In this document: piece after piece, positions 44,377 through 61,795 of the stretch
Layout of the letters: each line of letters starts with the position of its first letter
Numbering within the stretch: the stretch's first letter is position 1
Origin: Aggregatilinea lenta
GTDB taxonomy: Bacteria > Chloroflexota > Anaerolineae > Aggregatilineales > Aggregatilineaceae
Assembly (NCBI RefSeq): GCF_003569045.1
Contig: NZ_BFCB01000001.1
Coordinates: 124,001-188,000 of the forward strand
Reading direction: 5' to 3'
Length of the DNA: 64,000 nucleotides
Made by a program: the position numbers and the translations under genes
Notes under the pieces: model-generated
The model's input: only the letters and a program-made list of their open reading frames with translations
Told to the model about the DNA's origin: nothing
Database searches by the model: none

Positions 44377-45483
44377 CTACGGGTTGTTTCGGGAAACAAG
44401 AATGATCGATAGCAGATCCCGAAAACCGTAGATATGAGGCTTTCGTCCGCTGCCTTCTTGCAGAACCATAATGATCTTGCCTTCGCGCAATTTATTTAGC
44501 ATCGTCACGGCACTCGGTCGTGGCGCATTTATCGTTTTCATAAAGTCTGTCACGTTAAAGATCGGATGTCTGAATAATGCGTCGATTGTCTGTATCGCAT
44601 ATCGGGAGCCTGTCAGGTCGGGAATACGCCGCTTCATTTCTTCATACAGGTTCATGATTGCTTGCGCTTTAACAATATCCGATTTTGCCTGTTCGGTGAT
44701 TGCCTTCAAAAAGAAGATAATCCAATCGTCCCAGGCCTGCGTCTCTGAAATCTGGTACAGGCGATCGATGTATTCGCTGCGGTGCGCTTCGAGATACGCA
44801 CTGGCGTAAAAAACGGGCTGGCTCAGGCACTTCTTTTGATAAAGGAACAGGGGAACCAGAATGCGCCCTACACGTCCGTTCCCATCAACAAACGGGTGAA
44901 TCACTTCAAACTGGGCGTGAACTATCGCTAGCTGGACGAGTGAATCTTTTTCGTCTGAATGAATGTATTTTTCCCAGTTATCGAGCAAGGGCATAATCTG
45001 CTCCGGCGGCGGCGGGACATACCGGGCCTGATCCTGATTTGTCGACATTCCGCCGATCCAGTTTTGCACACGACGGAATTCACCGCGTCCTCTGAATTTT
45101 CCCCGTACGCCATCCAGCAGAATAGAGTGAATTTCTTTGACCAGATTCAAACTGAGCGGGTAAGTTTCCATCCGCTTTACAGCATAATCTAATGCTTGGC
45201 GGTAATTGATGACTTCCTGAATATCGGCCAGCCGATTTTCCGGTGGCTCTCCGGCGGCTTCGTACAACAGCACTTCTTCCAGAGAGGCTTGCGTCCCTTC
45301 AATCCGCGAGGACAGCACCGCTTCCTGCATGGTCAAGGGGGACAGAAAGATAGCCGGGTTCACAATCGATCTCAGCAGCCCATCGTACAGACCTAACTGA
45401 CGGTTCGCCTGTCCAATCCAGGGAGCCAATCGATCCCAACGGAGTTGATCCAGCGGCAGCTTCTGAGGATTATAGGGATCCAT
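44377..45483 (-). CDS. Fic-family protein (adenylyltransferase/AMPylator type)
   Basis: The 368-residue protein has a Fic_N region (residues 1-100) with the inhibitory helix motif SSRIEGT (S58 to E62). The Fic core has the active loop HPFVDGNGRVGR (H196), and a C-terminal winged-helix-like segment ends about residue 365 (FNVTDFMKTINAPRPSAVTMLNKLREGKII). The N-terminal inhibitory helix makes it class II, self-repressed. It would transfer AMP to hydroxyl side chains of a target protein. The gene is visibly lower in G+C than its neighbours, which suggests acquisition. It follows the FRG gene by 36 bases on the same strand. Confidence 0.93.
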   Translation of the reverse strand: MDPYNPQKLPLDQLRWDRLAPWIGQANRQLGLYDGLLRSIVNPAIFLSPLTMQEAVLSSRIEGTQASLEEVLLYEAAGEPPENRLADIQEVINYRQALDYAVKRMETYPLSLNLVKEIHSILLDGVRGKFRGRGEFRRVQNWIGGMSTNQDQARYVPPPPEQIMPLLDNWEKYIHSDEKDSLVQLAIVHAQFEVIHPFVDGNGRVGRILVPLFLYQKKCLSQPVFYASAYLEAHRSEYIDRLYQISETQAWDDWIIFFLKAITEQAKSDIVKAQAIMNLYEEMKRRIPDLTGSRYAIQTIDALFRHPIFNVTDFMKTINAPRPSAVTMLNKLREGKIIMVLQEGSGRKPHIYGFRDLLSIILVSRNNP

Positions 45484-45519
45484 AGACGCCCTTTTTGAAC
45501 CATTTCATACCCGGGCCTG

Positions 45520-46596
45520 TCAGCATCCTTTGAAATCCAGCCCTGCCGCGTTGCCCGACAGCCGCACTTTGGTCATGACCGCCTGCGCCACGTGGTCGAG
45601 CGTCGGCATCAGGTGGGCGCGCGTGACACGCTCCAGCCACAGCAGCCGCAGCAGTTCCGGCGCCTGCGTGATGGGCAGCATCAGCTTTTGGGGCTGGACG
45701 ATATTCGTCGGCGGATCGAGGTAGCTGACCGATTCTTCCAGGCTCGGATAATCCCCATGCTTCACGAACAGCGCATCGCCTTTGGCGTCGAACGTGAACA
45801 GCCCGGCCTGCGCGCGCAAGAAGTCGTTTTCGCTGGCAGGTACTTCCACCAGCTTGATGTGCTGCGTCAGCATCGTCTTGTGCAGCGCGTAGACGACCAG
45901 GCAGTCGTCCGCGCCGGGATCGGGAATGCCGATGTCTTTCGCCGCGAAGAATGACGCCGTGACCGGGTTGCGCGTCCAGTCGAGCAGCCGCGTCGGGATG
46001 CCGTGATGCTGTGCCAGCGCCACTGCCGGATGCCGCCAGAACGCGGACTGACGTTCTTCGGGATGGACATAAACCGCAGAGTGTCCCTGTTCATCCCACG
46101 TTTCAGGAAAGCTTTCCGCAATGTAACGCGAGACGAACGAACCGATCTCATGCGTCCAGATCGGCAGCGGATCGATCTTAAATCCCAATTCGTCGGCGAG
46201 ATCCGTGAATTCGTTGACCAGGGAGACTTCAGCATAAGCCTGAAGCACGACGGTCGTATTCCGCTCAACAAAAAGCTGTTGTTCTTCTTCGGTCAGCGGT
46301 CTAAGGGTGATGCGTTCTGCTGTGGGGCGGGGGAGCTTATTCCGTGCCTCCGCAAGGACAGTATCCCTGATCGTCGTCTTGACCTGCGCCAGCAGCCTGG
46401 TTTTTTCGATGTCCGGCTGCCGCCACGCGCTCGGCTTGAGCGGCGCTGCCGTGCCCTGCCCGCGAAAGATCCAGTCGCGCTGCCAACCGCAATCCGGCGA
46501 GCCGGATGGCGACGTGCCCCATTCCGGGTTGCTGAGGCGCAAGGCGTTCAAGAAGTCTTTGGCAGCGTCAAAGGGGTATTCAACAAACTGGACCAT
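45520..46596 (-). CDS. FRG-domain protein
   Basis: The 358-residue protein has the FRG motif as DWIFRGQG (about residue 45) and the second conserved block ALAQHHGIPTRLLDWTRNPVTASFFAA (about 195-220). Between them lies a variable helical insert. FRG domains are found in phage-related and defence-related proteins and are predicted nucleic-acid or nucleotide-binding enzymes. The ATG at 46596 follows GGTGG; a GTG nine bases earlier is possible. It starts 26 bases after nadK and continues into fic, so it is probably read from the SOS promoter upstream of nadK. Confidence 0.85.
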   Translation of the reverse strand: MVQFVEYPFDAAKDFLNALRLSNPEWGTSPSGSPDCGWQRDWIFRGQGTAAPLKPSAWRQPDIEKTRLLAQVKTTIRDTVLAEARNKLPRPTAERITLRPLTEEEQQLFVERNTTVVLQAYAEVSLVNEFTDLADELGFKIDPLPIWTHEIGSFVSRYIAESFPETWDEQGHSAVYVHPEERQSAFWRHPAVALAQHHGIPTRLLDWTRNPVTASFFAAKDIGIPDPGADDCLVVYALHKTMLTQHIKLVEVPASENDFLRAQAGLFTFDAKGDALFVKHGDYPSLEESVSYLDPPTNIVQPQKLMLPITQAPELLRLLWLERVTRAHLMPTLDHVAQAVMTKVRLSGNAAGLDFKGC

Positions 46597-46622
46597 AGCA
46601 GCCACCGCTCACGCGAGTTGTT

Positions 46623-53532: not shown

Positions 53533-53604
53533 GCCCCCATAGCTCAGAGGATAGAGCGTTGCCCTCCGGAGGCAGAGGCCCAGGTTCGAGTCCTGGTGGG
53601 GGTA
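53533..53604 (+). tRNA. tRNA-Arg (anticodon CCG)
   Basis: A complete cloverleaf. The acceptor GCCCCCA pairs with TGGGGGT (first pair G-U), discriminator A. The D arm is GCTC...GAGC, the anticodon loop CTCCGGA gives CCG, and the T arm is CCAGG-TTCGAGT-CCTGG. The CCA end is not encoded. It reads the CGG codon. It has its own promoter and terminator. Confidence 0.97.
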
Positions 53605-53620
53605 CAGCACAGGCATACAG

Positions 53621-53760: not shown

Positions 53761-56196
53761 ATGCTTTCCGCTGCCACCGGCAAGGGCACAACGCGCGCCG
53801 CTTCCAGCTGGCTCCTGTATCTGCTCATCGCCAGCCTGCCCGTCCTCCTGACGGTCGGCATCGTCACCCTCTACCTGGACACCTCGCTGTCACGGCTCGT
53901 GCCCGGCACGCCGGACGAGATCCGCTATTACCTGCAAATCGAAGGCACAGCCCGCGCCGGACTCGACACCGGATACTTCACCATCGAGGAATACGCCGCG
54001 CCCGTCTCGTTCCTGCGCTATGGCCCACACGGCCCCATCTTCCCGCTGCTGTACGGCGGCATCGCGGCGCTGGTGGGCTGGCCGCCCTATGCGGCGATGG
54101 CCGTGAACGTCGGCGTGTGGGTGCTGGCGCTGGCGGTGCTGCTCCTCACCGCGCGCCCCGACCGGACGCAAACGCTGCTGATCGGCGCGGTGATCCTCAC
54201 GTTTTACCCGGCGCTGATCTTCTGGCCGTCGAACATGCAGGAAAGCCTGCACGAAGCGATCGGCATCCTGCTGGCGGCGGGCTTCTACCGTCTGCTGCGC
54301 GATCACGGCGCCCGGCTGAGGATCGCGCTGTTCGGGCTGATCCTGCTGGCCTCGCTGATCCGCTATACGTGGGCATTCTTCTTCCCGGTACTGCTCATTT
54401 TCTCCCTGTCGCGCCCCACGCCCCGGCGTATTGTCATGGCGACGATTCAGGGGCTGGCGCTGGCGGCGGTAGCCTTCGCCGCCTTCACGCTGAGCGCGTC
54501 GCCGGTCAAGCACAACTTCATCAGCGAGTTTCTGGACGTCCTGCCCGATTCACTGTCCCGTGCGCTCGATCTGCTGGGCGATAATCTGTCCCGCAATGCG
54601 CGCTTCCTGACCGGCGGCGATTCGGGCTTCGGCAGCGCGGGCTGGGTCGTGCTGGCGATGATGGTCTTTGCCGTGCTGATCGTGGTCGTCGCGCTGGTGC
54701 GGACCAGACACGCGTCACTGCCTCCCGGCGACTGGCGCGACGCGGCGTTCCACGCATTCAATCTGCTGCCGGTGACGCTGCTCGCCTTCGTCCTGTACGA
54801 CATCTGGCAGGGCTACCGTACCGTGTCGGCGCACGTCCTGGCTAGCCTGCTGCTGCTCATCCTGACGCGGCGCTTCCGTCCCGTGGGGGCGGTCGTGCTG
54901 GTCAGCCTCGCGTGCCTGCCGCTGTTCCCTAAGCTCAGCGACGCCTACTACGACGCGAACTTTCATTACGCTGAAAGTGAAATCGACGCGGTCGCGGCCA
55001 CAACCGGGCCGTTCCTGCGCTACGATCCCGGCGCGCCGGACGGGTGGTGCAACACGGTGTTGGTGTCCGTCTCAAGCTACAACTACCGCCTGCTGCGCCT
55101 GGACCCCGGCCTGGGCGCGGCGATGCTGTACGACGTGGACGCGCTGACTCTGCCGCCGCGTTCGAAGTTCCTGCTGCTCAACCGGGATGACGCCCGCGCG
55201 CTGCACGAGTCCATCCCGCTCGACTATCTGGCCGATACGCCGGGCGCGCGGTTGTACTACAACCCGATGTCCGGCTGCGCGGCGGATTTTCCCCAGGGCC
55301 TCGCGCCCGACGTTGCCGCCGCGTATAGCAGCTTCACGCCGCAGGTCGAGATCCCGGCGGAAGCGGGCGTGCTCGTCATCGCGCCGGGCAGTCATGAAAG
55401 CTTCGAGGCGCTGGCGACGCCGGCCAGCCGCTATCTGACCTCCGCGCAGGTCGAGGCCCCGGTGCGCGACACCTTGTTCGAGCTGCTCGCGCTGCTGGAG
55501 CACGGCGTCACGCCCGGCGATCCGTCGGCGCTGGCGGCATGGCAGGCGTCCAAGCTGCCGGGCGATTTGCAGGCAGCAGGCGCGGACTATTTGCTGGTCA
55601 ACCGGGCGTGGCTGGACACGCTCAGCGACGTCGAAGCGCAACTTATCGTCGGCAACCCCCAGATGTATGAACCGATCGTAACCTTGACTCTGACGGGGCT
55701 AAGCGAGGATACTTACGCCCTGTATCGGGCGTCCGGCACGGCGACGCGCGCGACGTTTGGCCTGCCCGCCGAACTCTACGAAGCGTACCGGGCCAGCACA
55801 CCGGAGATCGCGCTGCCGCCCGACGCCATCGTGCTGAATCCGACGCGGGGCATGCTGACCCAGCGCGCCGATGTGGTTGCCGTTTACGGCGTTTATGCGG
55901 GCGGGATGCCCGACGAGGCGCTGTTTCAGACGCTGCACATTCTGGAGCACGTCGCCACACCTGGGGCGCTGCACCTGGACGACGACCAACGTGCCGCGCT
56001 GGATCGCTGGCAATCCACCCGCGACCCGGCGGATCTGCAGGCAGCGGGAATCGACTACCTGATCGCGGACGACGGCTGGATCGACAGCCTGCCGGACGAT
56101 CAGCAGCAGGCGCTGCGCACGGCGTACGCGCGTGTACCGGGTTGGTCGCTGGACTTCTACTACGAAACGTACGCTCTATACCGCGCCCGGCCTTAA
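53761..56196 (+). CDS. GT-C-like membrane protein with two extracytoplasmic repeat modules
   Basis: The 811-residue protein has an N-terminal membrane half (residues about 18-400, ten or more helices) with an acidic first loop (GTPDEIRYYLQ) and FLRYGPHGPIFPL, resembling GT-C glycosyltransferases. The soluble C-terminal half (about 400-811) holds two copies of a module of about 125 residues. Its core is PxDLxxAGxxYLxxxxxWxxxL...LYR: KLPGDLQAAGADYLLVNRAWLDTL and RDPADLQAAGIDYLIADDGW. The linker PPDAIVLNPTRGMLTQRAD between them recurs in the next two genes. It is first of a three-gene cluster. The sugar donor and acceptor are unknown. Confidence 0.65.
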   Translation: MLSAATGKGTTRAASSWLLYLLIASLPVLLTVGIVTLYLDTSLSRLVPGTPDEIRYYLQIEGTARAGLDTGYFTIEEYAAPVSFLRYGPHGPIFPLLYGGIAALVGWPPYAAMAVNVGVWVLALAVLLLTARPDRTQTLLIGAVILTFYPALIFWPSNMQESLHEAIGILLAAGFYRLLRDHGARLRIALFGLILLASLIRYTWAFFFPVLLIFSLSRPTPRRIVMATIQGLALAAVAFAAFTLSASPVKHNFISEFLDVLPDSLSRALDLLGDNLSRNARFLTGGDSGFGSAGWVVLAMMVFAVLIVVVALVRTRHASLPPGDWRDAAFHAFNLLPVTLLAFVLYDIWQGYRTVSAHVLASLLLLILTRRFRPVGAVVLVSLACLPLFPKLSDAYYDANFHYAESEIDAVAATTGPFLRYDPGAPDGWCNTVLVSVSSYNYRLLRLDPGLGAAMLYDVDALTLPPRSKFLLLNRDDARALHESIPLDYLADTPGARLYYNPMSGCAADFPQGLAPDVAAAYSSFTPQVEIPAEAGVLVIAPGSHESFEALATPASRYLTSAQVEAPVRDTLFELLALLEHGVTPGDPSALAAWQASKLPGDLQAAGADYLLVNRAWLDTLSDVEAQLIVGNPQMYEPIVTLTLTGLSEDTYALYRASGTATRATFGLPAELYEAYRASTPEIALPPDAIVLNPTRGMLTQRADVVAVYGVYAGGMPDEALFQTLHILEHVATPGALHLDDDQRAALDRWQSTRDPADLQAAGIDYLIADDGWIDSLPDDQQQALRTAYARVPGWSLDFYYETYALYRARP

Positions 56197-56242
56197 GGCC
56201 GGTGCGGGAACGTCACGGTTAGCGGAACGGGACCACACCTTT

Positions 56243-58969
56243 ATGGGGATTGAAACGGGTCAGACTCGCCTGAACGTCACACACAACGTCAGCTTGAGGA
56301 ATTGGTTACAGACCCGACGGGCGGAACTCATCTCGCTGCTGGTGCTGATCGCGGCCACGCTCGTCAGCACGATCTACGTCGTGGATCGCATGTTCAGCTA
56401 TGGCCCCTGGGACTATCGCTTCCACGTCGATCTGGCGCTGAAAATGAAGGAACGGGTGTCCATCGAAGCGCCGCACTTCCTCTACCACGCCTTCCTTATT
56501 CTGATCAAGCTCATCGGTCCCGACTTCTCCCGCCAGGATCTCGCCAGCATTTCTATCGTGGTGATGCGTCTCGCGGCGGCAGTCGTGATCTTCTACCTGC
56601 TGCTGGAGGTGCTGCCCCGGCCCACGAGCTACCGGGCCGGGCTGACCGCGGTTGTCCTGTCGCTCGTGCTGTTGATCGTCACGCCGATCACGCTGCGCAC
56701 GTGGGAAGAGGGCCGGATGTATCTGGGTTACATCGGCGTGAACGCGATGCACAACCCGACGATCCTGATGCTGGCTCCGTTCGCGCTGCTGTTGGGCTGG
56801 ATCTCGGCGCGGATCGCCTTCAGCCCGCCCGACCGGCCCGGCATCCGGCGCGACGCCGTGCTGGCCGCGCTGCTGATCGTATTCTCGACGCTGTCCAAAC
56901 CGAGCTACCTGCTGTGCCTGCTGCCCGCCGTGGGCATCATCGCGCTCGTGCGGCTGCTGCGGCACGAGCGGCTGGCATGGGGGCCGCTGATCTTCGGGAT
57001 CGGCATCCCCGGCGTGATCTTGCTTGTGTGGCAGTACGCGTTTACCTACGTCATCGCGTCCGATTCGCTCAGCGAGTCCGGCATCATCTGGTCGCCGCTG
57101 ACGATCATGCGCACCCACGCCGAAGGCTCCCTGACCGACAAGTTTCTGCTCTCCATCGCCTTTCCGGCGCTGGTGTACCTGCTGTTTTTCCCCGCCGCGC
57201 GCCGCGATCGCTTTTTCACGCTGTCTACACTCACCTTTGTGTTCGGAGCCGGATACACGTATCTACTGGCCGAAACGGGATCGCGCGCAACGGATGGCAA
57301 CTTCATCTGGAGTTCACAGATCGCACTGTTCATCTGGTTCGTCGCGGCAGTGCAGTTTCTGCTCCGGCGTAACTATCCGCTGATCTTTGGCCGCGTCTGG
57401 CGCGACCGGCTGCGGACGCTGATCGTGCTGGCCGCGCTGGGCGTGCACCTGTTCAGTGGGCTGGTATTCCAGGCGCGGGGCGCGATCTTCATCAATGGCT
57501 ACGACGATCTGCCGCACCTCGACTTCGATTTCGGCGGGGACACGCTGGAATCGATCATGGGCAAGGACCTGTACGACGCCTATGTCCAATTCAGCATTGC
57601 ACGGCCCCATAAGTACCTGACTCAGCCTGCCGATGCCGAGGAATGGGGCATCGTGTGGAACGTCGAGGGAAACGGCCTGGTTGGGCTGGAAGTCATCAAT
57701 TACATCGCGGACATCTTCCAGGGACCGGCACCGATTCCGCATGCATACAAAGAGCACTACTATGAAGTCATCTATCAAATCGTTGCGCGGCACCACTTCC
57801 AGCCCGACAAGCTGACTCCGGCGCGGCAAGACAGCCTCACGCGCTGGTACGTCACGGGCTATCCGGGCGATCTGCGCGATGCGGGCGCGCGCTATCTCTA
57901 TGCCAGCCGCACCTGGCTCGACAGCCTTTCGCCCGATCAACAGCAAACCCTGCTCACTGCGCGTTACTATCTGCGCCTGCCGCTTGACGCCGATCACGCG
58001 CTGTTCGTGGCTGTTGGCGATGAGCGGACCACACTTGATACGCTGTTCTCACCCACCTATGCCCGCGCCTATGCGGCTTACGACGGCCCCATGACGCCCG
58101 TCCTGCTTCTGCCGGACGGGATCGCCGTCAATCCGTATGCCGTGCTCAAGCTGGTTGGCGACCGGCTGCAAGATCGACCCGCGACCGAGCAGGAAAAAGA
58201 CGACCTGTTCGGCGTCATCAAAGCAGTCACAGAGGAGCAGTATCTCCCGGCGACGTTTGACGATCCCGCGCAGCAGGCGGCCTTCGACCGCTGGGCGATC
58301 GGTAAGCTGCCCGGCGACCTGCGCGATGCGGGCGTGGACTACCTACTGCTCGACCAGCGCGGCTACGTGATCCCCTATCTTACCGACGTGCAGCGCGCGC
58401 TGATCTTCGCCTCGCCGCAGTACTACGAGCTGATCGGGGAAGGACTGGGCGTCAGCCTGTATCGCGTCACGGGCGAGCAAACGCTCGACACGCTGGGCCT
58501 CGCGCCGGACACCTATGCCGCGCTGGAAGACTATCAGCCCGATTTCGATCCTGACTGGTCGCCCGACACGCTGGTGCTCAACCCGACCCAGGGCGCATTG
58601 ACATCACGTGCGGACGTGCGGCAGGTCATGGGCGTCTATCTCGAAACGACCGACGACCCCGCCGAGGACGAGGTCAGCGCGTGGTTCGACCGGCTCAAGG
58701 TGGTGCAGAACCTCGTCGCGCCGGACGACGCCCGGCTCAGCGCCGCGCAGCAGGCGGCGGTAGCGCGCTGGCAGACCAGCCGCGACCCGGCGGATCTGCT
58801 GGATGCGGGCATCGGATACGTGGTGTTCGACGACACGTGGCTGCACGCGCTGCCCGACGCGGAACGCGCCACCCTGAGCGATCCGGCGCAGTACGCGCCG
58901 GTCGAGGACTGGCAGCTCGACTTCTACGGCGAGTTCTACCACCTCTACCGGGTGCTCGACGGCAACTAG
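56243..58969 (+). CDS. GT-C-like membrane protein with three extracytoplasmic repeat modules, paralogue A
   Basis: The 908-residue protein has about ten to twelve transmembrane helices (residues about 25-420). The first periplasmic loop holds YGPWDYRFHVDLALKMKE and PHFLYHAF, and a GVNAMHNPTILMLAPFALLLG segment follows. The C-terminal 480 residues contain three modules with cores GYPGDLRDAGARYLYASRTW, KLPGDLRDAGVDYLLLDQRG and RDPADLLDAGIGYVVFDDTW. The last 258 residues are nearly identical to those of the next gene, at DNA level too, while the N-terminal parts differ much more. It starts 46 bases after the 811-residue gene. It is probably a glycosyltransferase or polymer-processing membrane enzyme; the activity is unproven. 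Confidence 0.6.
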   Translation: MGIETGQTRLNVTHNVSLRNWLQTRRAELISLLVLIAATLVSTIYVVDRMFSYGPWDYRFHVDLALKMKERVSIEAPHFLYHAFLILIKLIGPDFSRQDLASISIVVMRLAAAVVIFYLLLEVLPRPTSYRAGLTAVVLSLVLLIVTPITLRTWEEGRMYLGYIGVNAMHNPTILMLAPFALLLGWISARIAFSPPDRPGIRRDAVLAALLIVFSTLSKPSYLLCLLPAVGIIALVRLLRHERLAWGPLIFGIGIPGVILLVWQYAFTYVIASDSLSESGIIWSPLTIMRTHAEGSLTDKFLLSIAFPALVYLLFFPAARRDRFFTLSTLTFVFGAGYTYLLAETGSRATDGNFIWSSQIALFIWFVAAVQFLLRRNYPLIFGRVWRDRLRTLIVLAALGVHLFSGLVFQARGAIFINGYDDLPHLDFDFGGDTLESIMGKDLYDAYVQFSIARPHKYLTQPADAEEWGIVWNVEGNGLVGLEVINYIADIFQGPAPIPHAYKEHYYEVIYQIVARHHFQPDKLTPARQDSLTRWYVTGYPGDLRDAGARYLYASRTWLDSLSPDQQQTLLTARYYLRLPLDADHALFVAVGDERTTLDTLFSPTYARAYAAYDGPMTPVLLLPDGIAVNPYAVLKLVGDRLQDRPATEQEKDDLFGVIKAVTEEQYLPATFDDPAQQAAFDRWAIGKLPGDLRDAGVDYLLLDQRGYVIPYLTDVQRALIFASPQYYELIGEGLGVSLYRVTGEQTLDTLGLAPDTYAALEDYQPDFDPDWSPDTLVLNPTQGALTSRADVRQVMGVYLETTDDPAEDEVSAWFDRLKVVQNLVAPDDARLSAAQQAAVARWQTSRDPADLLDAGIGYVVFDDTWLHALPDAERATLSDPAQYAPVEDWQLDFYGEFYHLYRVLDGN

Positions 58970-58980
58970 CCGGAAGCGCG
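58205..58980 (+). repeat. 776-bp near-identical tract, copy 1
   Basis: The 3' part of paralogue A plus 11 bases after its stop. It matches 60997-61772 without gaps and with only scattered substitutions, while flanking sequence on both sides is far more diverged. The sharp borders suggest gene conversion or unequal exchange. Confidence 0.85.
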
Positions 58981-59055
58981 CCAGCGCATCACCGGGGACG
59001 CTGGCGGCACATAACAAATGACAGGTAAGCGGGTGAACCATGCAACGGATAAACG

Positions 59056-61761
59056 ATGCAGATAGAAGCTGAATCGACCCAAAGCACTGTATCAGGTCGT
59101 GGGGACCGGCTTGGGCATTTCATCCGGGCGCACCGCGCCAAAGGTGTTTCGCTCGTTCTCCTGATCGTCCTGGTCCTGGCTGGCACCTATTACGTGGCGT
59201 GGCGCACCTTCAGCTACAGCCCCTGGGACCATCGCTTCCATGTGGATGCCGCGCTGGAAATGAAGCGATACGCCTCGATTGATGTCCCGCATTTCCTGTA
59301 TCACGCATTCATCATCTTCCTGACCGTTATTGGCCCAGATCTCAGCCTTCAGGCCCTGGCGACGATCTCCATTCTCGTCACGCGGCTGGCGACGGCGATT
59401 GTGGCCTACTTGCTGGTGCTGGAAGTCCTGCCCAAACCGGTGACCTATCGCGCCGGGCTGATCGCCGCCTTTACCTCGATCATGCTGCTGATCGTCGCAC
59501 CGATCACGCTGCGCACGTGGGATGAAGGCCGGATGTACCTGGGGTACGTGGGCATCAACGCCATGCATAATCCGACGCTGCTGATGCTGACGCCGTTCGC
59601 ACTGGCGCTGGCTTGGGTGACGGCCCGCATCGCCTACAGCACGCCGGACCGGGTCGGGCTGCGGCGCGACATGTGGTTATCGATCGTTCTCATCGTGCTG
59701 TCGACGCTCGCTAAGCCGAGCTACCTCATCTGCCTGCTGCCTGCGGTGGGCATCATCGCCGGAATCCGGCTTTTGCGCCGGGAGCGCCTCCCGTGGGCGG
59801 CGCTGATCTGGGGCATCGGCGTGCCCAGCGCCATTTTGCTGGCCTGGCAGTACATCTTCACCTATGGGAGTTCTCTGGGATCTGTTGCGATCAGTCCGGG
59901 CGGCATCGCCTGGTCCCCGTTCACCGTCATGCGCATCCACGCCCAAAACGGGACGCTGCTCGATAAGTTCCTGCTGTCCATCGCGTTTCCGGCATTGGTC
60001 TATGGCCTGTTTTTCCCGGCGGCGCGGCGCGACCGCTTCTTCACCTTTTCGACGCTGGCCTTCCTCTTTGGCGCATTTTACATGTACTTTCTGGAAGAAT
60101 CGGGCAGGCGCGCGCAGGACGGCAACTTCCTTTGGAGCGCGCAGATTGCGCTGTTCATCTGGTTCGTTGCGGCGGTGCGCTTCCTTCTTCAGCGTAACTA
60201 TCCCACGCTGTTTGGCTCCCGGTGGGGCGACCGCCTGCGCAGCCTGACCGTCCTCGTGTTCCTGGGACTACACCTGTTCAGCGGATTCGTCTACCAGGCG
60301 CGGGGCGCAATTTACATTACGGGCTACAAATTGAGCCACGTCGCGTTTGACTTCAAATCCTACACCCCCAACTACCTGTTTGAGAGGCCGCTGTACCGGG
60401 AATATCTACAGGCCAGCCTGAACTGGGACGACCTGCCGGGGCTGGTCTGGCAGCCCGGACTCCCCACGCCGGTGCCGCCCGAAGTCATGGAGCCGATCAG
60501 CAACTACATCAAGGCCACGCCCGATCTGTCGCCCGAAGACAAAGAAACCTACTTTAAAGTCATCTACCAGATCGTCTACGGGCATGTGTACTTCCCTAAC
60601 TTCTCGACACCCGAACAGGACGCCGCAATCTCCCACTGGAACATTACGCGCCTCCCCGGCGATCTGGTGGACATCAAAATTCGCTACGTGATCGCCAGCG
60701 ATGTCTGGTTCGAGAGCCTGTCGCCGGTCCACCAGCACGTAATGCTCAACCCGGCGTTCTATACGCGCATGCCTATCGACGACGAGTACACTTTGTTCGT
60801 GGTGACAGGCGATCAGCACGAGTCGATCGAAACGCTGCTAACCACGCCGGTTTATGAGGCGTACCAGGATTATGCCGGGCCGGTGACGCCGGTTCTGCTG
60901 CTGCCCGAAGACATCGAGGTCGATCCCGATACCATGTTGCAGATGCTTGGCGATCGGGTGCAACACACCCCGCTGAGCGCCAACGAGCGTGATGCGCTGT
61001 TCGGCGTCATCAAAGCAGTCACAGAGGAGCAGTATCTCCCGGCGACGTTTGATGATCCCGCGCAGCAGGCTGCCTTCGACCGCTGGGCGGTCGGCAAGCT
61101 GCCCGGCGACCTGCGCGATGCGGGCGTGGACTACCTGCTGCTCGACCAGCGCGGCTACGTGATCCCCTATTTCACCGACGTGCAGCGCGCGCTGATCTTC
61201 GCCTCGCCCCGGTACTACGAGCTGATCGGGGAAGGACTGGGCCTCAGCCTGTATCGCGTCACGGGCGAGCAAACGCTCGACACGCTGGGCCTCGCGCCGG
61301 ACACCTATGCCGCGCTGGAAGACTACCAGCCCGATTTCGATCCTGACTGGTCGCCCGACACGCTGGTGCTCAACCCGACCCAGGGCGCACTGACATCACG
61401 TGCGGACGTGCGACAGGTCATGGGCGTCTATCTCGAAACAACCGACGACCCCGCCGAGGACGAGGTCAGCACGTGGTTCGACCGGCTCAAGGTGGTGCAG
61501 AACCTCGTCGCGCCAGACGACGCACGCCTGAGCGCCGCGCAGCAAACTGCCGTCACGCGCTGGCAGACCAGCCGCGACCCGGCGGATCTGCTGGATGCGG
61601 GCATCGGATACGTGGTATTCGACGACACGTGGCTGCAGGCGCTGCCCGACGCGGAGCGCGCCACGCTCAGCGATCCGGCGCAGTACGCGCCGGTCGAGGA
61701 CTGGCAGCTCGACTTCTACGGCGAGTTCTACCACCTCTACCGGGTGCTCGACGACAACTAG
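59056..61761 (+). CDS. GT-C-like membrane protein with three extracytoplasmic repeat modules, paralogue B
   Basis: The 901-residue paralogue of the preceding gene has the same architecture. Loop 1 carries YSPWDHRFHVDAALEMKR and PHFLYHAF, with GINAMHNPTLLML and about ten to twelve helices. Three C-terminal modules follow, of which the first is partly eroded (RLPGDLVDIKIRYVIASDVW, where the usual AG is lost). The last two modules are almost identical to those of paralogue A. A tandem duplication with later homogenisation of the 3' end explains this. It starts 86 bases after paralogue A and ends before a terminator, so the cluster of three is probably one transcript. Confidence 0.6.
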   Translation: MQIEAESTQSTVSGRGDRLGHFIRAHRAKGVSLVLLIVLVLAGTYYVAWRTFSYSPWDHRFHVDAALEMKRYASIDVPHFLYHAFIIFLTVIGPDLSLQALATISILVTRLATAIVAYLLVLEVLPKPVTYRAGLIAAFTSIMLLIVAPITLRTWDEGRMYLGYVGINAMHNPTLLMLTPFALALAWVTARIAYSTPDRVGLRRDMWLSIVLIVLSTLAKPSYLICLLPAVGIIAGIRLLRRERLPWAALIWGIGVPSAILLAWQYIFTYGSSLGSVAISPGGIAWSPFTVMRIHAQNGTLLDKFLLSIAFPALVYGLFFPAARRDRFFTFSTLAFLFGAFYMYFLEESGRRAQDGNFLWSAQIALFIWFVAAVRFLLQRNYPTLFGSRWGDRLRSLTVLVFLGLHLFSGFVYQARGAIYITGYKLSHVAFDFKSYTPNYLFERPLYREYLQASLNWDDLPGLVWQPGLPTPVPPEVMEPISNYIKATPDLSPEDKETYFKVIYQIVYGHVYFPNFSTPEQDAAISHWNITRLPGDLVDIKIRYVIASDVWFESLSPVHQHVMLNPAFYTRMPIDDEYTLFVVTGDQHESIETLLTTPVYEAYQDYAGPVTPVLLLPEDIEVDPDTMLQMLGDRVQHTPLSANERDALFGVIKAVTEEQYLPATFDDPAQQAAFDRWAVGKLPGDLRDAGVDYLLLDQRGYVIPYFTDVQRALIFASPRYYELIGEGLGLSLYRVTGEQTLDTLGLAPDTYAALEDYQPDFDPDWSPDTLVLNPTQGALTSRADVRQVMGVYLETTDDPAEDEVSTWFDRLKVVQNLVAPDDARLSAAQQTAVTRWQTSRDPADLLDAGIGYVVFDDTWLQALPDAERATLSDPAQYAPVEDWQLDFYGEFYHLYRVLDDN

Positions 61762-61772
61762 CCGGAAGCGCG
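60997..61772 (+). repeat. 776-bp near-identical tract, copy 2
   Basis: Counterpart of 58205-58980, ending 11 bases past the stop of paralogue B with the shared TAGCCGGAAGCGCG. Confidence 0.85.
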
Positions 61773-61795
61773 CGCCGCCATTTCAAGCAGAACTA

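What the first reader, a model, noticed from the sequence alone, without database searches (positions are those of the whole stretch)
53761..61761. Repeated C-terminal module (PxDL-AG-YL...LYR) in three adjacent giant membrane proteins
Eight copies of a module of about 125 residues can be recognised: two in the first protein and three in each of the others. Each has a core of the form (K/R)xPxDLxxAGxxYLxxxxxWxxxL, most end in an aromatic LYR-like strand, and a D-x-(I/L)-x-(V/L)-N-P linker joins the modules. The last module resembles the C-terminal cap seen in many GT-C enzymes, but tandem multiplication of it is unusual. It may be an extracytoplasmic glycan- or lipid-binding domain not yet described.
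Basis: partly seen in the sequence, partly recalled or inferred. Interest (0 to 1): 0.68.

Follow-up and report, generated by a model that had tools for sequence, protein, structure and literature searches.

The report
Tandem cap domains on membrane glycosyltransferases
Three neighbouring bacterial membrane proteins that look like sugar-transferring enzymes each carry two or three copies of the same small outer domain, which the same genome also uses on a different surface-modifying enzyme, so the domain is probably a shared grip for a cell-surface polymer, though that function is not yet tested.

Summary
The repeat is real: eight copies of a 144-154-residue alpha/beta module lie in three adjacent membrane proteins (2+3+3). 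Each is found by an HMM that excludes it (57-93 bits; best of 200 shuffles per copy at most 10.7), and the five modelled copies share one secondary-structure order. Only about six copies are divergent: the last ~254 residues of proteins 2 and 3 are a recent conversion or duplication tract. The P3 model has a GT-C fold (39 best of 50 listed entries, top STT3, Z 18.8). The module pair's best solved matches, weak, are GT-C C-terminal domains (Z 4.3-3.9). No Pfam, NCBIfam or PDB sequence family fits; sequon-binding motifs and conserved catalytic residues are lacking. The modules look appended: relatives of both membrane parts exist without them. A ninth copy caps an SGNH-like protein beside an MBOAT, an arrangement found in 4 of 4 genomes with that protein. 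Full-length copies were found in 7 of 154 genomes of the order. Best reading: a mobile, non-catalytic GT-C-type cap that positions an envelope-polymer acceptor; the binding role is inferred. New variant of a known kind.

The parts
53761..56196 (+). Protein 1 (811 aa): GT-C-like protein (residues 1-513, including its own C-terminal stretch with a WCNT motif) followed by two modules
   Evidence: seven relatives of 507-643 aa, one in the own genome, align to residues 17-516 and end at or within 25 residues of that point; Asp-Asp/Glu in the first outer loop of 8 of 8 sequences (by eye). No structure was predicted for this part.
55300..55737 (+). Module P1m1 (residues 514-659)
55762..56193 (+). Module P1m2 (residues 668-811), terminal type
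56243..58969 (+). Protein 2 (908 aa from ATG 56243): GT-C-like membrane part followed by three modules
   Evidence: membrane part 55-80% identical to that of protein 3 over most of its length
57557..58018 (+). Module P2m1
58043..58474 (+). Module P2m2
58499..58960 (+). Module P2m3, terminal type
58205..58981 (+). Conversion/duplication tract shared with 60997-61773: second half of module 2, module 3, stop codon and about 12 bases beyond; sharp edge inside module 2
59056..61761 (+). Protein 3 (901 aa): membrane part 1-421 with GT-C fold; invariant positions include D58, H62, H171, P173, T174, K220, Q265, F358, W360; then three modules
60376..60810 (+). Module P3m1 (residues 441-585); 8 of 39 GT-C alignments extend to its end
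60835..61266 (+). Module P3m2 (residues 594-737)
61291..61752 (+). Module P3m3 (residues 746-899), terminal type
60997..61773 (+). Second copy of the conversion/duplication tract

Best explanation
Each module is a non-catalytic, extracytoplasmic alpha/beta cap domain of the kind that closes GT-C glycosyltransferases over their acceptor (it works like the central-core unit of oligosaccharyltransferases, without the peptide-sequon motifs). In this lineage the cap became a mobile cassette. Two caps stand behind a GT-C-like protein that already has its own C-terminal domain (protein 1); three stand behind an unrelated GT-C-like family whose relatives have none (proteins 2 and 3); and a single one sits on an SGNH-like protein that pairs with an MBOAT. 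Shown: repeat, shared predicted fold, GT-C fold of the protein 3 model, outside location, existence of the GT-C-like parts without modules, occurrence on three protein families. Inferred: that absence in relatives means addition here; and that the cap array holds and feeds the acceptor, probably one envelope polysaccharide or glycoprotein common to these enzymes, to the membrane-embedded active sites, more caps giving a longer or tighter grip.
For: Fold: five modelled copies have the same secondary-structure state in 81-92% of aligned residues, against at most 56% for any rotation control (models, pLDDT 87.5 and 82.5). Full P3 model: the 39 best of 50 listed entries are GT-C-fold proteins, Z 18.8-9.8; 8 of them (STT3 and AftD chains) have alignments ending at residues 584-588, the end of module 1. 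Module-pair model: the three best rows are GT-C C-terminal regions, 3vu0 AglB Z 4.3, 7zlg DPY19 Z 4.0, 8b6l_I Z 3.9, then 3.1 and below. Profile match to caps of large membrane proteins elsewhere in the phylum (97.5%, E 6.8e-12). No catalytic set: in 15 rows the invariant columns are W, L, Y, L, with P and Y nearly so. Relatives without modules: 0 of 16 ORFs similar to the P2/P3 membrane part (13 of 391-792 aa, 3 fragments) has one; 7 of 7 examined relatives of the P1 N-part end where P1's modules begin. Shared use: in 4 of 4 genomes with a module on an SGNH-like protein an MBOAT gene (PF03062) is next to it; in the 3 where its end is present the MBOAT ends F[VI]YQGF. In G062 an AMP-binding ligase precedes them. 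In the own genome this is the ninth copy.
Against: No binding data. Foldseek found no significant match for the module pair (best E 0.02, unrelated), and VIA Z 4.3 is in the range that can be a common arrangement; the same list holds DHFR and methyltransferases at Z 2-3. 31 of the 39 GT-C alignments of the full model do not run through module 1 (30 end by residue 437, one at 516), and a range gives only first and last aligned residue. pTM of that model is 0.53. WWDYG and DK motifs are absent from all 15 rows. P1's own C-terminal stretch shows no profile similarity to the module. Distant caps match only within profile positions 89-150 and were found with the module profile. The locus is not in an obvious glycan gene cluster: neighbours include RadA-like, VanW, tRNA-editing-domain and solute-binding proteins. 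The window proteins and the SGNH-like protein lie on different contigs.
Confidence: 0.5

Rival explanations
1. The modules are protein-protein docking or assembly domains that hold the three GT-C-like proteins (and elsewhere the SGNH-like protein with its partner) in one complex, and do not touch the acceptor.
For: Three module-bearing genes in tandem; terminal modules of P1, P2, P3 and one of G061 form one group (91/89); conserved residues are mostly hydrophobic or aromatic; module-bearing SGNH-like proteins sit beside an MBOAT in 4 of 4 genomes.
Against: Outside the own genome, 7 of the 8 genomes with a match have module matches in one protein only (G053 has four such proteins, on four contigs); 8 of 39 alignments place module 1 at the STT3/AftD cap position.
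Confidence: 0.22
2. The multiplication is largely neutral: tandem duplication and gene conversion of a cap domain, without a selected role for array length.
For: Recent conversion tract whose edge lies inside module 2, not at a module border; first and second modules of P2/P3 are sister groups (94/94); long arrays are rare.
Against: Copies that are only 24-44% identical in the pairs compared keep the core residues and the same predicted secondary structure, which suggests purifying selection; the cap sits on three different protein families.
Confidence: 0.15
3. A novel carbohydrate- or lipid-binding domain, unrelated by descent to GT-C caps.
For: No family match; weak structural scores; EmbC has a C-terminal lectin-like carbohydrate-binding module (PMC3044687, title and start of abstract in search listings only).
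Against: Profile match to caps of large membrane proteins; top structural rows are GT-C C-terminal regions; module 1 at the GT-C cap position in 8 alignments.
Confidence: 0.13

Closest known systems
Central core (CC) unit of oligosaccharyltransferases (AglB, STT3, PglB)
   Same: Mixed alpha/beta domain of similar size (152-181 residues in five AglB/PglB proteins, 243 in a sixth; PMC3703281, passages read) after the membrane region of a GT-C enzyme; best VIA rows
   Different: No WWDYG, no DK motif; two or three in tandem; also found outside GT-C-like proteins; Z only 4.3
C-terminal domains of other GT-C enzymes (DPY19, AftD) and caps of ~690-1030-residue membrane proteins elsewhere in this phylum
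   Same: Position; DxLxxLGIxYV-like strand core and LYR end in the phylum caps; DPY19 row, AftD rows
   Different: Phylum caps match only within profile positions 89-150; no array of three full modules was seen in the calls made
SGNH partner of MBOAT-SGNH acyltransferase pairs (DltD, PatB)
   Same: Gene pair with MBOAT (PF03062) in 4 of 4 genomes, FXYXXF end of the MBOAT in 3 of 3 whose end is present, GSS motif in 3 of 3 SGNH-like proteins compared (mechanism in PMC12148441, abstract and passages read)
   Different: Carries an extra cap module at its C-terminus; three tested (own, G044, G062) reach no Pfam cut-off

Membership tests
GT-C glycosyltransferase (membrane part of proteins 2 and 3) | GT-C membrane fold | tested here: met
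   P3 model (pLDDT 82.5, pTM 0.53): the 39 best of 50 listed entries are GT-C proteins, Z 18.8-9.8, next row Z 7.2 (that chains 6ftg_5, 8b6l_I, 9n9j_I are STT3 and 7w72_U, 8imx_U are PIG-U is recalled, not in the titles); Foldseek ranks 1-9 GT-C, E 1.2e-4 to 7.1e-3. Protein 2 was not folded; it is homologous
GT-C glycosyltransferase (membrane part of proteins 2 and 3) | Acidic DxD/DD-type motif in the first outer loop | tested here: inconclusive
   One invariant Asp, D58, followed by invariant H62, in 14 of 14 rows; no second acidic residue is conserved. Motif definition from PMC6801728 (passages)
GT-C glycosyltransferase (protein 1, residues 1-513) | Acidic DxD/DD-type motif in the first outer loop | tested here: met
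   Asp followed by Asp or Glu in 8 of 8 sequences, read by eye; its fold was not predicted
GT-C glycosyltransferase | Sugar transfer from a polyprenol-linked donor | not testable with these tools
   Needs biochemistry
Oligosaccharyltransferase central core unit (module) | WWDYG motif | tested here: not met
   No WWD or WWxY in 15 of 15 module rows
Oligosaccharyltransferase central core unit (module) | DK (DxxKxxx[MI]) or MI (MxxIxxx[IVW]) motif | tested here: not met
   DK 0 of 15; the MI pattern fits 1 of 15 (P3m1), not conserved
Oligosaccharyltransferase central core unit (module) | Core alpha/beta fold | tested here: inconclusive
   Z 4.3, 97 residues, 3.5 A to 3vu0_A; top row but under the tool's trust level; no Foldseek match at E <= 0.001
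Oligosaccharyltransferase (own genome) | PF02516 STT3 match | tested here: not met
   0 matches at E <= 1e-5 in G000; 8 of 60 class genomes and 4 of 14 control genomes matched
MBOAT-SGNH acyltransferase pair (ninth module) | MBOAT gene adjacent, with FXYXXF acyl-shuttle end | tested here: met
   PF03062 next door in 4 of 4 genomes (G000, G011, G044, G062); end FVYQGF or FIYQGF in the 3 whose end is present, the G011 gene being cut by the contig end
MBOAT-SGNH acyltransferase pair (ninth module) | SGNH domain with catalytic Ser and Asp/His | tested here: inconclusive
   GSS motif 3 of 3; an Asp/Asn..His stretch seen by eye, but my DxxH-like pattern fitted 0 of 3; no Pfam family over cut-off. 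The name SGNH-like rests on this and the MBOAT neighbour

The most novel reading that the evidence does not exclude
The module is an address domain: a transferable, tandemly countable recognition cap that marks enzymes of different chemistry (GT-C glycosyl transfer, MBOAT-SGNH acyl transfer) for one envelope polymer, array length acting as a ruler or processivity clamp, the extracytoplasmic counterpart of carbohydrate-binding modules on glycoside hydrolases, built from the GT-C cap.
Probability: 0.2. Interest if true: 0.68.

Novelty: new variant of a known kind. Interest (0 to 1): 0.45.

Why it matters
GT-C caps are usually described as a fixed part of each enzyme (my own knowledge). Here a cap-like domain behaves as an independent, mobile and tandemly repeated unit, shared between unrelated GT-C-like proteins and an acyltransferase partner. 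That offers a handle on how outer-face enzymes without a sequon choose their acceptor, which is hard to test in single-cap enzymes: here caps could be removed one by one from the same protein. It also points to a domain family that no library searched here describes and that occurs on MBOAT-linked, in one case dlt-like, acylation genes.

Tried and rejected
Family libraries: no Pfam or NCBIfam family reached its cut-off for the three proteins; weak hits such as Toxin_GhoT_OrtT (E 0.012), AksF (E 0.0038), PRK00259 (E 0.055) or CPP1-like (E 1.8 and 5.3) are taken as chance. PDB by sequence, P0003: 18 sequences at E <= 10, led by designed beta-propellers at residues 396-426 (best E 1.3e-4, no single stretch passing), a membrane helix in the model and so taken as spurious; then cystathionine beta-synthase (E 0.013) and mitochondrial bL19m (E 1.3). 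Module profile: best E 0.15. Foldseek on the module pair: no match at E <= 0.001. Viral or other-genome relatives: none found (only two short patterns each, so weak evidence, and the tool may leave the own genome out). Foreign base composition: GC 0.62-0.67 for the three genes against 0.63 for the window. P1's own C-terminal stretch as the parent of the modules: no profile similarity. A sequence comparison with real STT3/AglB core units was not made: one search gave partial PF02516 matches, which I did not pursue. In one search, two further P1 matches (L083, partial; L088, 64 residues, E 3.9e-4) were not examined. That three full modules in a row occur only here rests on searches of 154 genomes of the order, a sample of 396 of the class and one of 400 of the phylum, overlapping sets, in which at most 25 (order) or 9 (class, phylum) first-look candidates per genome were scored. 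Novelty in print: six searches of open PMC papers listed no paper on such arrays among the rows shown; most subscription papers are not held.

Full report
WHAT IS THERE. Three ORFs lie head to tail on the + strand behind a tRNA-Arg gene (53533-53605): protein 1 at 53761-56196 (811 aa), protein 2 from ATG 56243 to 58969 (908 aa) and protein 3 at 59056-61761 (901 aa). A module of 144-154 residues occurs twice in protein 1 and three times in each of the others. HMMs built without the copy under test (and, for proteins 2 and 3, without its counterpart) score all eight copies at 57-93 bits; 200 shuffles of each copy reach at most 10.7. The NP string lies inside the module, at its first strand in most models, not in a linker.

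RECENT HISTORY. Proteins 2 and 3 are 66% identical overall, but from protein 3 residue about 648 to about 12 bases past the stop codon they are 92-97% identical in amino acids and 80-100% at third codon positions (blocks of up to 40), against 33-65% at third positions before that point. The edge is sharp and lies inside module 2. This is a gene-conversion or duplication tract, so the eight copies are about six divergent ones. In an 18-row tree the last modules (P1m2, P2m3, P3m3, with one from G061) group together (91/89) and the first modules of proteins 2 and 3 group with their second ones (94/94), both just short of the tool's star; the fork parting inner from terminal types is weak (74/87). 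The second half of P1 m1 and all of m2 align as one block with P3 m2-m3 at 40% identity.

FOLD. Two AlphaFold2 models were made. P1 505-811 (14 rows) has mean pLDDT 87.5 and pTM 0.81. Full protein 3 (18 rows) has mean pLDDT 82.5 and pTM 0.53, so its domain placement is less sure than its domains. The five modelled modules share one order of elements (strand, helices, strand YLL, helix, two strands ending LYR); aligned residues have the same state in 81-92% of cases, rotation controls at most 56%. For full protein 3 the 39 best of 50 listed entries are GT-C-fold proteins, led by yeast STT3 (Z 18.8, 419 residues, 6.5 A). Of these 39 alignments, 8 (8agb, 8age, 7oci, 6c26, 6s7t, 6w98, 9n9j, 6wbx) end at residues 584-588, the end of module 1; one ends at 516 and 30 stop by residue 437. 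Some chain identities (6ftg_5, 8b6l_I, 9n9j_I as STT3; 7w72_U, 8imx_U as PIG-U) are recalled. Foldseek agrees (8b6l_I E 1.2e-4, ArnT 3.8e-4, yeast OST 5.0e-4). For the module pair, Foldseek gives nothing significant, but the three best VIA rows are C-terminal regions of AglB (3vu0), DPY19 (7zlg) and STT3A (8b6l_I) at Z 4.3, 4.0 and 3.9, followed by 3.1 and lower. These are weak scores; their agreement with the full-length result is what carries weight. The second module was barely tested in that search.

MEMBRANE PARTS. In protein 3 an 11-helix assignment taken by me from the model gives K+R in 13 of 67 inside-loop residues and 11 of 126 outside-loop residues, so the modules are outside. Across 14 rows of this family the invariant positions include D58, H62, H171, P173, T174, K220, Q265, F358 and W360; N172, E348 and N357 are kept in 13 of 14. 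Invariant polar residues suggest an active enzyme; the usual two-acidic-residue motif is not evident. Protein 1's membrane part belongs to another family, with Asp-Asp/Glu in the first outer loop in 8 of 8 sequences.

THE MODULES LOOK ADDED. Sixteen distinct ORFs in the loci match the membrane part of proteins 2 and 3: eleven of 391-475 aa, two of 768 and 792 aa with an N-terminal extension, and three fragments; none has a module (before it). Seven ORFs of 507-643 aa, one in the own genome (L089), match protein 1 residues 17-516 and end there or within 25 residues, with no module (two weaker matches not examined). So the modules stand behind proteins that exist without them; that they were gained here and not lost elsewhere is the simpler reading, not shown by a tree.

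THE NINTH COPY AND OTHER GENOMES. In the own genome nine copies match, eight in this window and one at the C-terminus of a 544-aa protein on another contig. That protein has a GSS motif and sits next to an MBOAT (PF03062, E 5.4e-22; TIGR04091 DltB at 161 bits, below its cut-off of 375). A module-bearing protein of this kind beside an MBOAT is also found in G044 and G062 and, cut at its start by the contig, in G011: 4 of 4. In G062 an AMP-binding ligase stands in front. The three MBOATs whose end is present end in F[VI]YQGF, the FXYXXF acyl-shuttle motif of MBOAT-SGNH pairs (PMC12148441, abstract and passages read). In G053 three large membrane proteins (790-888 aa) carry a full module, two of them with a partial one before it, and a fourth has two partial ones; one matches the WsfD hexose transferase family below its cut-off (22.9 against 80 bits), and near two of them lie sugar-nucleotide or glycosyltransferase-like genes, named by eye. 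In the order, 9 of 154 genomes match at E <= 0.001, 7 of them with a full-length module. In a sample of 396 class genomes 3 match: the own, one other of the order, and a weak one. In 400 phylum genomes 14 match: the own, and 13 only within profile positions 89-150, in open frames of 691-1027 residues. Those caps match the module profile at 97.5% probability, though they were found with that profile.

FUNCTION. In 15 rows only W91, L100, Y107 and L149 are invariant and P29 and Y132 nearly so: a structural core, no catalytic set. Oligosaccharyltransferase core units hold the acceptor sequon with WWDYG and DK/MI motifs (PMC3703281, passages read); WWDYG and DK are absent from all 15 rows, and the own genome has no PF02516 match at E <= 1e-5. 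The economical reading is a cap that holds an acceptor near the active site. Use of the same cap on GT-C-like proteins and on an MBOAT-SGNH-like pair suggests a shared envelope polymer. This last step is inference.

VERDICT.

Noticed in passing
53533-53605: A tRNA-Arg (CCG) gene lies directly upstream of the three-gene block; whether the block was inserted at the tRNA was not examined.
   Followed up: no
58205-58981 and 60997-61773: Recent conversion/duplication tract between proteins 2 and 3 with a sharp edge inside module 2, ending about 12 bases past the stop.
   Followed up: yes
L090 7652-10716; L107 7079-10186; L108 1066-5734; L018 2-2104: SGNH-like proteins with a C-terminal cap module beside MBOATs, three of which end F[VI]YQGF; in L108 an AMP-binding ligase comes first, giving a dlt-like order.
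   Followed up: partly
L109 6618-9887, L094 7790-10453: Pfam DUF6798 (PF20604; over its cut-off in L109, just under it in L094) lies about 100 residues before the module in large membrane proteins.
   Followed up: no
L006, L007 flanks: In G014 and G002 the stand-alone relative of the P2/P3 membrane part has an Rhs/SpvB-like ORF in its flank, named by eye.
   Followed up: no
44380-46605: A Fic-domain gene and an FRG-domain gene lie side by side on the - strand.
   Followed up: no
L009 400-2703, L014 331-2706: Two relatives of the P2/P3 membrane part carry an extra N-terminal stretch of about 350-400 residues instead of C-terminal modules.
   Followed up: no
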